64,000 nucleotides of DNA from Arenibacter latericius DSM 15913 (GTDB taxonomy: Bacteria; Bacteroidota; Bacteroidia; Flavobacteriales; Flavobacteriaceae), in contig NZ_AUKX01000012.1 in NCBI RefSeq assembly GCF_000424985.1, positions 1 to 64,000 of the forward strand. The letters are read 5' to 3'. Under the pieces are notes generated by a model that was given only the letters and a program-made list of their open reading frames with translations, was not told the DNA's origin and did no database searches. A program made the translations under genes and the position numbers. Position 1 is the stretch's first letter. Each line of letters opens with the position of its first letter. Below, one piece after another: positions 26,634 through 31,544 of the stretch.

Positions 26634-27143
26634 TTAATCTAAAATATCTAGGCTTTTGGAAAATTCTTCTGCAAAAGGCCAATCGTTTTCGGTTATGAAG
26701 AGGTAACATTTCACAATTCGCTCTTTAAATTCTGGCAATAGACCATTAACTGAAATAAACTGAATCATTTCGCTAAACGATTTCTCCATGCTTTTATAGA
26801 AAGCAGCAGGCAATTTATTTTGTATAGAGTATGTCTGTGCTATTTCTAAATTGTAAAGCATCAGGTCTGCAGTGATATGCGGATCAACACCGAGGGTAAT
26901 AAAATGTTTGATGAATTTATGAGCTACAGATCTCCTAGCTTTTGCACGATTTCTCTTTTGGGGAAAATACTCATTGGAAATTTTAATTTTAGCCTCTTGC
27001 AGAAGTTTATCTTCTTTAGGATTAAAAACAAAATCGTAGTATTCTTTTACAATTGGAAATCTAGTGTACAAATCTATCACTTGCATTTCCAACTCTTTCT
27101 TTTTTAACTCAGACAAATACTTTGTCAATGCTCTTTTGCTCAT
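26634..27143 (-). CDS. DUF6155-type protein, function unknown
   Basis: This 169-residue, all-helical, basic protein begins MSKRALTKYLSELKKKELE, which I recognise as the start of the DUF6155 family. The ATG at 27141-27143 is chosen; an earlier ATG at 27203 would add an unrelated MCGFLSRKDSLILHRTNLSG. Other features are NEYFPQKRNRAKARRSVAHK, a basic patch, and a helical C-terminus rich in aromatic residues. No enzyme motif is present. It is monocistronic and divergent from rpoD. Confidence 0.78.
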   Translation of the reverse strand: MSKRALTKYLSELKKKELEMQVIDLYTRFPIVKEYYDFVFNPKEDKLLQEAKIKISNEYFPQKRNRAKARRSVAHKFIKHFITLGVDPHITADLMLYNLEIAQTYSIQNKLPAAFYKSMEKSFSEMIQFISVNGLLPEFKERIVKCYLFITENDWPFAEEFSKSLDILD

Positions 27144-27289
27144 ACCACTCAAATTGGTTCTGTGCAAAATAAGAGAATCTTTTCGTGATAGAAAACCGCA
27201 CAAGAACTGAAATTAGTAAATAAATCGCTGACAAAAGAGAACAATATCATAATGTTTTCTTAATTAACGGGTTAGAACCACGTAAACCT

Positions 27290-27355: not shown

Positions 27356-28219
27356 ATGAGGCAACTAAAGATTATCAAGCAGGTTACGAATAGGGAGTCT
27401 AAATCATTAGATAAGTATCTGCAAGATATCAGTAAGATTGATTTGATTACGGCTGATGAAGAGGTAGAATTAGCGCAGAGAATTAGGGATGGGGATCAAT
27501 TGGCGTTGGAGAAACTGACTACAGCAAACCTTAGATTTGTGGTTTCGGTAGCCAAACAATATCAGAATCAAGGACTAACCCTACCGGATTTAATTAATGA
27601 GGGTAACTTAGGATTAGTAAAGGCGGCTAAACGATTTGATGAAACGCGAGGGTTTAAATTTATCTCATACGCTGTATGGTGGATTAGACAAGCAATTCTT
27701 CAGGCATTGGCAGAGCAATCGCGAGTGGTACGATTACCATTAAATAAAATTGGCTCGATTAATAAAATTAAAAGGACTTTCTCCTATTTGGAACAAGCGC
27801 ATGAGCGTCCACCATCTGCAGAGGAAATAGCAAAGGAATTAGATTTATCTATTTCAGAGGTTGAACAGTCTATGAAAATTTCTGGGAGACACGTCTCAAT
27901 GGATGCGCCATTAAAAGAAGGTGAAACTTCCAATCTTTATGATGTGCTGCGTTCCGGAGAATCACCTAGACCAGACAAAACATTATTACTTCAATCTCTA
28001 AATACTGAAGTAAACAGAGCACTGGATACCCTTTCTCCGAGGGAAGCAGATGTTATTAAGCTTTATTACGGAATTGGTGATCAGCAACCTATGACCCTTG
28101 CAGAAATTGGACTTACGTTTGACCTAACTAGGGAAAGAGTAAGACAAATCAGAGAAAAAGCGATTAGAAAACTTCGCCACAACTCTAGAAATAAAATGCT
28201 TAAAACGTATTTAGGATAG
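27356..28219 (+). CDS. rpoD: Primary sigma factor RpoD (SigA), short Bacteroidetes form
   Basis: This 287-residue sigma-70 factor has no region 1.1 or non-conserved domain, as usual for Bacteroidetes. Region 1.2 includes [20 protein letters not shown], region 2 includes [21 protein letters not shown] and [13 protein letters not shown], and region 3 includes [11 protein letters not shown]. Region 4 ends with [20 protein letters not shown], the -35-binding helix-turn-helix. It is monocistronic and ends before a long-range stem. Confidence 0.97.
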
Positions 28220-28230
28220 TTTCATAATTT

Positions 28231-28360
28231 AAAAGGCTATCTAAAGAAGATAACTTATCGGTCCATTGAGGATATTATTTATACCATTGAAGAATAAATC
28301 TTCAAACGGGTTTTCCCTCTTAGTGCCATAAAGCTTACTCTTTCTTAGATAGCCTTTTTT
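28231..28360 (+). terminator. Long-range stem with T run at the rpoD 3' end
   Basis: Bases aaaaggctatct (28231-28242) pair perfectly with agatagcctttt (28347-28358), followed by further Ts. The 104-base interior includes a smaller hairpin, ttgaag-aataaat-cttcaa. A normal terminator has a loop of a few bases, so this may be a structured 3' UTR or a released small RNA. Confidence 0.5.
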
Positions 28361-28372
28361 ATTTTCTTTCTT

Positions 28373-28474
28373 TTAAGAAGTAGTTAATTTTTTGATGTTG
28401 AAATCAGATAAAATTTGGTTTAGATCATCAATAAAATTCATGTAAGCTGCACTATCAAAATGTCGGTTTTGCAT
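28373..28474 (-). CDS. Micro-ORF 1 of a tandem related pair (33 residues)
   Basis: The ATG at 28472-28474 opens a 33-codon frame ending in TAA. Its core AYMNFIDDLNQILSDF matches EYLAFLQDLNEILSLN of the ORF just upstream: 8 of 13 positions are identical from Y to S and three more are conservative. Both cores start at about residue 11, so two chance ORFs are unlikely to agree this way. It is probably one amphipathic helix. It has no signal peptide. It lies 31 bases after micro-ORF 2, likely on the same transcript, and points toward the rpoD 3' end. Confidence 0.5.
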   Translation of the reverse strand: MQNRHFDSAAYMNFIDDLNQILSDFNIKKLTTS

Positions 28475-28505
28475 AATGGTTGATTTTTTTAAAATTGATA
28501 TTAAA

Positions 28506-28604
28506 CTACATATAGTCTAACTCTACCAATTCGTTTAAACTTAAAATTTCATTTAAATCTTGAAGGAATGCTAGGTATTCCTCGCCGTAGGTTTCATACA
28601 ACAT
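28506..28604 (-). CDS. Micro-ORF 2 of a tandem related pair (32 residues)
   Basis: This ATG-to-TAG frame begins MLYETYGEEYLAFLQDL and continues NEILSLNELVEL; it is acidic and predicted to be one helix. Its resemblance to micro-ORF 1, equal spacing of the shared block, and a plausible promoter (28652-28682) argue for a real gene. Possible roles such as signalling peptide, sigma or RNA-polymerase modulator, or toxin are speculation. No homologue is known to me. Confidence 0.5.
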   Translation of the reverse strand: MLYETYGEEYLAFLQDLNEILSLNELVELDYM

Positions 28605-29059
28605 AATAAGACTGGTTTAAAAGGTTAATTTTTGGGGTAATAATTCGTTAGTAAATATATCTACTATCTACAATTTACGCAATAAAATGTGGTGAATATG
28701 AATATTTTTGTTGTAAAACTACCCTAACTTACCCCCTACTTTAAAGAAGTATATCTGATTTAATAATATAATTCTAGATTACTAAATGTCTTTTTCATAA
28801 TTCCGAAACGATATATTTTTCTTTTTTGGCAGCTCCAATAGCTCTATAAACCCTTATTCAATTGGTCATTTTATCCTTTTGGGTTTCTACGTCCGATATT
28901 CCAGTTTGGACTTGAGGCAGTATTAAGTTATAATAATAGGTTGGTATCTTATTCATTCCGATACTCTTTAATATAACTACCCCAACAGGAATTAAATATT
29001 CAGTAGGTTTCGTTTTCTATTGTCAATTAGCGTTATTTGTAGGTCCTAAACCAAATATT
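28605..29059. other. Intergenic region between micro-ORF 2 and the dipeptidase gene
   Basis: Apart from the putative minus-strand promoter at 28652-28682, I see no gene, repeat or strong hairpin. The plus strand immediately before 29060 should hold the dipeptidase promoter, but no box fits the consensus well. Confidence 0.4.
28652..28682 (-). promoter_or_regulatory. Putative promoter of the micro-ORF pair
   Basis: Read on the minus strand, TTG (28680-28682) and TATATTTA (28652-28659) are 20 bases apart, close to the Bacteroidetes -33 TTTG / -7 TAnnTTTG arrangement, with one mismatch in the -7 box. Transcription would begin about 40 bases before micro-ORF 2. Confidence 0.35.
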
Positions 29060-31130: not shown

Positions 31131-31544
31131 ATGAACAATAGAACGGATTGCCTTTTGGAGATTAGACCGCTTATTCCTAATGCAGTAGTAACCGATAATA
31201 TGAGTACAGGTGAAAAGTTTCAGAATAAAACATTGCGTCCCATATTAAAATTGCAAAACGCATTGTTAGTAATGGTCCTTAAAAACTATATCACCAAACA
31301 CAAAAATGGGTTTTACGGATTAAGTTTAGAGGAGAGACTCTTTTTTATTGAAAATTCCATTCAAAAGGACATCAAATTTAGGAATTCTTTAAAGGGTATT
31401 ATTATTGGGCAGTTTACTGAGGAGGAATACCAGTTGTATACTCAAGACTCATCGGCACTTAATAAACGAATGATGCAGATGGTTATAGAACGTTTAAAGG
31501 ATCAAATTCAGTTGTTTGAAGAAGATACGGTAGTCATATTATAA
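31131..31544 (+). CDS. Conserved flavobacterial protein of unknown function
   Basis: This 137-residue helical protein has the blocks GEKFQNKTLRPILKLQNALL, FIENSIQKDIKFRNSLKGII and SALNKRMMQMVIERLKDQI. I recall close relatives in many flavobacteria, sometimes labelled glyoxalase, but no glyoxalase metal ligands or beta-alpha-beta repeats are visible here, so I would not use that name. It ends five bases before the convergent DUF2461 gene. Confidence 0.78.
   Translation: MNNRTDCLLEIRPLIPNAVVTDNMSTGEKFQNKTLRPILKLQNALLVMVLKNYITKHKNGFYGLSLEERLFFIENSIQKDIKFRNSLKGIIIGQFTEEEYQLYTQDSSALNKRMMQMVIERLKDQIQLFEEDTVVIL

What the first reader, a model, noticed from the sequence alone, without database searches (positions are those of the whole stretch)
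28373..28604. Tandem pair of related micro-ORFs downstream of rpoD
Two minus-strand ORFs of 32 and 33 codons share YLAFLQDLNEILS / YMNFIDDLNQILS (8 of 13 identical) at nearly the same position in each, lie 31 bases apart, and have a promoter-like TTG-N20-TATATTTA ahead. Random ORFs this short would not agree. The position against the rpoD 3' end suggests a link to transcription control or simply a preserved locus; either would be new to me.
Basis: partly seen in the sequence, partly recalled or inferred. Interest (0 to 1): 0.72.

Follow-up and report, generated by a model that had tools for sequence, protein, structure and literature searches.

The report
Conserved tandem microproteins beside second sigma
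Two tiny, related genes of 32 and 33 codons sit next to a spare copy of the main sigma factor gene in a bacterium of the Arenibacter group; they look like real, strongly conserved protein genes kept together in many related bacteria, match no family in the libraries searched, and what they do is not yet known.

Summary
Confirmed, and larger than claimed. ORF-A (28506-28604, minus) and ORF-B (28373-28474, minus) are conserved, homologous microprotein genes: pooled pN/pS over 80 named loci is 0.077 (A) and 0.254 (B). Both occur in 70 of 397 Flavobacteriaceae genomes and in 79 of 80 named loci. Neither matches Pfam or NCBIfam.

The neighbouring sigma gene is not the housekeeping rpoD but a second RpoD-like paralogue, 'sigma2'; the RpoD-type copy is elsewhere (81% identical). 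Of 397 genomes, 67 have B and sigma2, 3 B only, 1 sigma2 only; two of the 3 hold a broken or cut sigma2-like gene. In 65 of the 67 they are linked.

A has its own promoter, with two boxes 20 bp apart in 71 of 78 loci. A is probably older than the arrangement: five genomes of three genera have A without B, boxes or nearby sigma2, in the same chromosomal neighbourhood.

Each product is predicted as mainly one amphipathic helix. Most likely they act by docking on a partner protein, plausibly sigma2/RNA polymerase: inferred, weakly supported.

The parts
28506..28604 (-). ORF-A, 32-aa microprotein gene MLYETYGEEYLAFLQDLNEILSLNELVELDYM
   Evidence: 18/18 genus members carry it at least in part; 74/397 family genomes at E<=1e-3; pN/pS 0.059 over the 17 close sequences (15 of the genus, 2 of other genera), 0.077 over 80 named loci; predicted helices 2-6 and 8-31, mean pLDDT 79.9
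28373..28474 (-). ORF-B, 33-aa microprotein gene MQNRHFDSAAYMNFIDDLNQILSDFNIKKLTTS, diverged tandem duplicate of A
   Evidence: 70/397 family genomes at E<=1.2e-9; 79/80 named loci; pN/pS 0.246 (19 close sequences) and 0.254 (69 distinct); hhalign to A 94.9%; predicted helix 4-24, mean pLDDT 81.3
28652..28682 (-). Promoter core of the A-B unit: TTG (28682-28680), 20 bases, TATATTTA (28659-28652), of the -33/-7 type known in Bacteroidota
   Evidence: Conserved in the alignment of 14 relatives; a -7-like box was found in 70 of 78 named loci, starting 35 bp after the start of box 2 in 67 of those 70
28688..28714 (-). Two half-sites just upstream of the -33 element: ACAACA (28714-28709) and CACCACA (28694-28688), likely regulator site
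   Evidence: Start-to-start offset of exactly 20 bp in 71 of 78 named loci, one mismatch allowed in the first box and variants of the second; the full pattern occurs once in the window's own genome, at this site
27356..28219 (+). sigma2: second RpoD-like sigma-70 gene (287 aa), convergent with A-B
   Evidence: Sigma70 regions 1.2, 2, 3, 4; own clade of 96 rows in the tree, SH-aLRT 96; within 3 kb of A and convergent in 76/80 named loci
28231..28358 (.). Long hairpin between B and sigma2, probably the shared terminator of the two converging units (inferred)
   Evidence: MFE -41.8 kcal/mol, z -5.47; matched in 4 of 6 genomes searched, all of this genus, once each, in one of them only over 50 bases; several other relatives show a short hairpin there by eye
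26634..27203 (-). DUF6155 gene, divergent neighbour of sigma2, part of the old neighbourhood
   Evidence: PF19652 E 2.4e-62; homologue about 3 kb from A in two A-only genomes, G327 and G117

Best explanation
A and B are a two-gene unit encoding two homologous microproteins without a signal peptide or membrane stretch that I could see. Each is mainly one amphipathic alpha helix whose conserved face (Y, F, L, N, L spaced over about three turns) docks on a larger partner protein. The unit is made from its own promoter under a regulator that binds the two boxes upstream of the -33 element. A is ancestral; B arose by tandem duplication; the pair became fixed next to sigma2. The most likely partner is the transcription machinery carrying sigma2, so that A and B would modulate sigma2. 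SHOWN: protein-level conservation, homology of A and B, linkage, promoter geometry, A-only lineages. INFERRED: order of evolution, helix as the working form, docking, regulator site. INFERRED AND WEAK: that the partner is sigma2/RNA polymerase.
For: Coding: pN/pS 0.077 (A) and 0.254 (B). Interface-like conservation: 21 of 32 positions of A invariant in an alignment of 27 rows (25 distinct; 26 of the 80 named loci plus the window); still 12 of 32 in 9 rows chosen to include the most divergent copies. Helical models; A net charge -8 with no basic residue. Association with sigma2: 67 genomes with both, 3 B only, 1 sigma2 only, 326 neither, of 397; two of the three B-only genomes have a sigma2-like gene with an in-frame TGA (G190) or running off a contig end (G344); linked within 37-739 bp in 65 of 67. 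Sigma2 and A stay together in 73 of the 76 stretches compared (75 long named loci plus the window) while flanking genes differ between lineages on both sides. B, the two boxes and nearby sigma2 are all absent from the five A-only loci, so they may have come as one package.
Against: A exists without B and without nearby sigma2 in five genomes of three other genera; four of the five have one RpoD-like sigma, scoring below the sigma2 cut, and the fifth, G097, is a contaminated draft in which no sigma was found, so absence there is unsure. So A's original job did not need this sigma. G175 keeps A, B and the boxes without sigma2, although its very divergent other sigma (58% identical) cannot be placed surely; G382 keeps sigma2 without A or B. 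Co-occurrence may be one inheritance event in one clade; the Fisher value ignores phylogeny. The units are convergent, not one operon. No structure of a complex could be predicted.
Confidence: 0.33

Rival explanations
1. Real small proteins whose function has nothing to do with sigma2. They dock on some other conserved partner (metabolic, envelope or ribosome-associated), and the sigma gene is a neighbour that moved in and stayed.
For: A without nearby sigma2 in the same neighbourhood in five genomes of three genera; A and B kept in G175 without sigma2, 130 kb from it in G297 and on another contig in G264; convergent, separately promoted units.
Against: Linkage kept in 65 of 67 genomes although flanking genes differ between lineages; B and the two-box promoter were seen only in the sigma2-bearing group plus G175, and not in the five A-only loci.
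Confidence: 0.45
2. The transcript works as RNA or as a leader peptide (attenuator); the peptides themselves do not matter.
For: Short ORFs, conserved promoter, hairpin downstream.
Against: Amino acids far better conserved than synonymous sites; the 10-57 bp spacer between A and B is poorly conserved; no gene downstream in the same direction, the next gene is convergent; no Rfam match in the window at gathering thresholds.
Confidence: 0.04
3. A toxin pair, type I toxin-antitoxin system or two-peptide bacteriocin.
For: Two small adjacent peptide genes, predicted amphipathic helices.
Against: A carries net charge -8 and no basic residue; no long hydrophobic stretch; the neighbours are a sigma factor, DUF6155, a dipeptidase and a thioesterase, not immunity or export genes; one strong match in the own genome and in the other genus members, 18 of 18.
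Confidence: 0.04
4. Chance ORFs.
For: None beyond their small size.
Confidence: 0.01

Closest known systems
Small sigma- or RNA-polymerase-binding regulators (FlgM, AsiA, CsfB, Rsd; recalled, no call)
   Same: Small, non-secreted, partly helical or acidic proteins, some encoded near or with the sigma they act on.
   Different: These are about two to five times longer (recalled). No match of A in the PDB sequences beyond one chance hit (B not searched there), none of A or B in Pfam or NCBIfam; binding is untested; A exists without sigma2 nearby.
Second RpoD of flavobacteria (Dokdonia MED134_05474 and Krodi_2724, PMC3587595; section 'Sigma factors' read, and passages)
   Same: A second RpoD homologue beside the housekeeping one, promoter specificity stated as unknown.
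   Different: That section mentions no neighbouring small genes; whether the Dokdonia gene is the same paralogue was not tested here.
Conserved bacterial microproteins of unknown function found by comparative genomics or Ribo-seq (recalled as a class)
   Same: Short ORFs under strong purifying selection that annotation tends to miss.
   Different: A homologous tandem pair fixed beside a duplicated primary-type sigma gene, with a promoter of fixed geometry.

Membership tests
Protein-coding gene (as against chance ORF) | Amino acids conserved more than synonymous sites across relatives | tested here: met
   pN/pS 0.077 (A, 74 distinct sequences from 80 loci) and 0.254 (B, 69 distinct 33-aa sequences)
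Protein-coding gene (as against chance ORF) | Translation detected | not testable with these tools
   No Ribo-seq or proteomics data on hand
Tandem paralogues | Sequence homology of A and B beyond chance | tested here: met
   hhalign probability 94.9%; 0 of 20,000 shuffles; a profile of A-family rows only gives 36 weak hits (E 1.5e-4 to 0.02), of which 32 are B and 4 lie in long unrelated frames
Anti-sigma or sigma-modulating proteins | Binds a sigma factor or RNA polymerase | not testable with these tools
   No complex prediction possible
Anti-sigma or sigma-modulating proteins | Genomic association with the cognate sigma | tested here: met
   65 of 67 linked; 76 of 80 named loci; but convergent, not co-operonic
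Anti-sigma or sigma-modulating proteins | Phyletic dependence on that sigma | tested here: inconclusive
   Near-perfect co-occurrence in one clade, but A alone in 5 genomes, G175 without sigma2 and G382 without A/B
Known protein families (Pfam, NCBIfam) | Profile match | tested here: not met
   0 families at E<=10 for A and B
Peptide toxins / type I toxin-antitoxin | Hydrophobic membrane-spanning or cationic helix | tested here: not met
   Net charge A -8, B -1; amphipathic, mean hydrophobicity of the best 18-residue window 0.16 and 0.22 on the scale typed in the script
Leader peptide / attenuator | Regulated gene directly downstream on the same strand | tested here: not met
   Next gene is convergent sigma2
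Direct-repeat sites of LytTR-type activators (recalled) | Two direct half-sites about two helical turns apart just upstream of the promoter | tested here: inconclusive

The most novel reading that the evidence does not exclude
A and B are dedicated modulators of an alternative primary-type sigma factor: two 32-33 aa helices, among the smallest such regulators, made from a regulated promoter beside sigma2, forming a transcriptional switch particular to the Arenibacter-Maribacter-Zobellia-Muricauda group. A related second sigma in some other flavobacteria has instead a spare ribosomal protein bS21 gene as its direct neighbour, so second sigmas in this family may repeatedly recruit small partner proteins.
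Probability: 0.2. Interest if true: 0.8.

Novelty: new variant of a known kind. Interest (0 to 1): 0.6.

Why it matters
The pair is strongly conserved, yet matches no Pfam or NCBIfam family. It sits beside a second RpoD; for the second RpoD of Dokdonia, PMC3587595 (2013) states that the promoter consensus is not known in flavobacteria (whether that is the same paralogue was not tested). Two short genes that occur in cultivated environmental bacteria can be deleted, tagged and pulled down, which would make the role of this second sigma directly testable.

Tried and rejected
Rfam scan of the window: 0 matches at gathering thresholds. Class-wide search with a combined A+B profile: 4 of 395 genomes at E<=1e-3; three are family members with the pair and one (G742) lies in an 805-aa frame and looks like chance. 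Ten weak profile hits were fetched: nine looked like chance or gave nothing, one (G327) proved to be an A-only genome. PDB sequence search with the A profile: one chance hit, E 3.7. A fold search of the helices was not run: a lone helix matches anything.

Mistakes and dropped rows: one search read the wrong strand for many loci and is discarded (redone). One search uses 17 A and 19 B sequences; left out of A were G007 (interrupted), G028 (missed by my expression) and G008 and G012 (whose B had been taken for A, counted under B); left out of B were G007 and G028. The regular expression missed B in ten named loci; nine were read by eye and all ten were recovered. The motif count is not used. The first hairpin alignment used unoriented whole loci and is discarded (repeated). 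The sigma2 cut at 524 bits is mine: G380 scores 524.1 and G295 523.0; the tree puts the first inside and the second outside the sigma2 clade. In the tree, 220 sigma rows collapsed to 131 distinct; rows with a query span of 270 or less or with stops were dropped. The 80 are the best of 248 matches.

Paper searches that ran showed no description of these genes in their listings; PMC3587595 was read in passages and in its section 'Sigma factors', PMC9976891 in passages, the rest as listings only. Preprints and most subscription papers are not in that library.

Full report
1. The observation. The shared core has 8 of 13 identities; in 20,000 shuffles of both proteins the best 13-residue window never reached 8 (maximum 7, 4 times). 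The upstream element TTG-N20-TATATTTA is present.

2. They behave as genes. A search of 60 relatives found at least part of A in 18 of 18 genomes of the same genus. A pattern search of named genomes found 248 stretches that encode a relative of A; the best 80 were kept, from Arenibacter, Maribacter, Zobellia, Pricia, Kriegella, Euzebyella, Pseudozobellia, Croceivirga, Flagellimonas/Allomuricauda and others. In these 80 loci A is 32 aa in 80 and B follows in 79; the exception, L109, ends 6 bases after A. Pooled pN/pS is 0.077 for A (74 distinct sequences) and 0.254 for B (69 distinct 33-aa sequences); over the close sets of 17 and 19 sequences it is 0.059 and 0.246. The A-B spacer varies from 10 to 57 bp. 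No Shine-Dalgarno-like tetramer lies in the 20 bases before 79 of 80 A starts and 79 of 79 B starts, as is usual in this phylum (PMC6847099, start of abstract in the listing).

3. A and B are homologous. Profile comparison gives 94.9% probability. In a joint alignment of 27 sequences, Y11, F14, L18, N19 and L22 (numbering of B) are invariant. A is better conserved than B. AlphaFold models with family alignments are helical: A 2-6 and 8-31 (mean pLDDT 79.9), B 4-24 (mean 81.3). The helices are amphipathic, A with net charge -8, B with -1.

4. Distribution. In 397 Flavobacteriaceae genomes the B profile finds 70 at E<=1.2e-9, followed by a gap to 0.002, and the A profile 74 at E<=1e-3, which include all 70. 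Four have A only: G097, G117, G327 and G061 (the last at E 4e-4). A broader profile, built with G061, added G289 of the same genus (E 1.2e-12) among 254 genomes searched; one search had missed it, so profile counts are lower bounds. At class level 3 of 395 genomes have convincing matches, all in this family.

5. The sigma gene. It is a full-length sigma-70 with regions 1.2 to 4. In each of the 19 pair-bearing genomes G000-G018 a further copy about 81% identical exists; the one in the window's genome was fetched and is RpoD-type at 23 of 23 diagnostic positions, the window copy sigma2-type at 22 of 23. In a tree of 131 distinct sequences the sigmas linked to the pair, with those of G264, G297 and G382, form one clade of 96 rows (SH-aLRT 96), while the second copies from G175, G190, G264, G297, G344 and G382 fall among housekeeping RpoD. 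Five second sigmas of other flavobacteria (L207, L220, L218, L221, L225) lie outside this clade but carry the sigma2-type residue at 15, 13, 14, 13 and 9 of the 23 positions, which suggests, without proof, that sigma2 descends from an older RpoD duplication. Joining: 67 of 397 genomes have both B and sigma2, 3 have B only, 1 has sigma2 only. Of the 3, G190 has a sigma2-like gene with an in-frame TGA, G344 has one that runs off the end of its contig, and G175 has none of this clade. The 1 is G382, with no A in the whole-genome search and no A or B by sigma2; it has the longest sigma2 end branch. Linkage is within 37-739 bp in 65 of 67; in G297 the distance is 130 kb and in G264 the two are on different contigs. 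In named loci sigma2 lies within 3 kb and convergent in 76 of 80. These counts are not phylogenetically independent.

6. Neighbourhood and history. Among 76 stretches (75 long named loci and the window) sigma2 is beside the pair in 73, while several different gene families flank the trio on either side. In the A-only genomes A lies in the same neighbourhood: in G061 and G289 near homologues of the window's thioesterase and of the genes at 31131, 31550 and 32332; in G327 and G117 about 3 kb from DUF6155; in G097 beside the helicase homologue. A scan of 1 kb on either side found no B-like frame, none of the five has the paired boxes (one ACAAC alone in G289), and no sigma2 lies in the 14-kb stretches. 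The simplest history is: A first; B by tandem duplication; sigma2 and the two-box promoter added later in one clade. Repeated loss is not excluded.

7. Promoter. Upstream of A, boxes ACAACA and CACCACA start exactly 20 bp apart in 71 of 78 named loci, and a TANNTTTA-like box follows 35 bp after the start of the second in 67 of the 70 where it was found. Some Maribacter loci show a third box by eye. An exact form of the pattern was found in 6 of the 12 genomes tried (9 of the 12 carry the pair), once each and each time upstream of A; the reversed control pattern gave none. G175 keeps both boxes although it lacks sigma2, so they are probably a regulator site rather than a sigma2 signature.

8. 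Mechanism. The best-supported reading is two helical microproteins that act by docking on a partner, produced under a dedicated regulator. That sigma2 or RNA polymerase is the partner rests on linkage and co-occurrence alone, and I put it below even odds; the sigma-independent rival gets a slightly higher figure because it makes fewer claims. In G007 A is interrupted after codon 23 at what looks like an insertion between two contigs, so A is probably not essential.

9. Novelty. No family matches; the six paper searches that ran listed no description. The kind (conserved microproteins) is known; a homologous pair fixed beside a duplicated primary-type sigma is a new variant as far as I could test.

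Noticed in passing
L218, L221, L225 (G064, G085, G030), downstream of the second sigma; also G026:C10:573267-574401: In some other flavobacteria the second sigma gene is followed directly, in the same direction, by a gene for a second ribosomal protein bS21 (rpsU); in G026 an rpsU lies just upstream of a more diverged second sigma. The 11 genomes with A/B or sigma2 among the 21 tested have a single rpsU each; of the other ten, two have one and eight have two or three.
   Followed up: partly
window 28231-28358: A 128-nt hairpin (z -5.47) stands where other relatives have a short terminator; found in four genomes of this genus, once each, outer stem conserved, one match partial.
   Followed up: partly
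L022 1-100 and L033 1-210 (G007): A is split between two contig ends with TTTAAA on both sides, as after insertion of a mobile element: a natural disruption of A.
   Followed up: no
L205 / L238 (G382): A 2.2-Mb genome keeps sigma2 but shows no A or B; its sigma2 has the longest end branch of the clade.
   Followed up: no
L235 (G190): The sigma2-like gene beside A/B has an in-frame TGA; real decay or sequencing error cannot be told.
   Followed up: no
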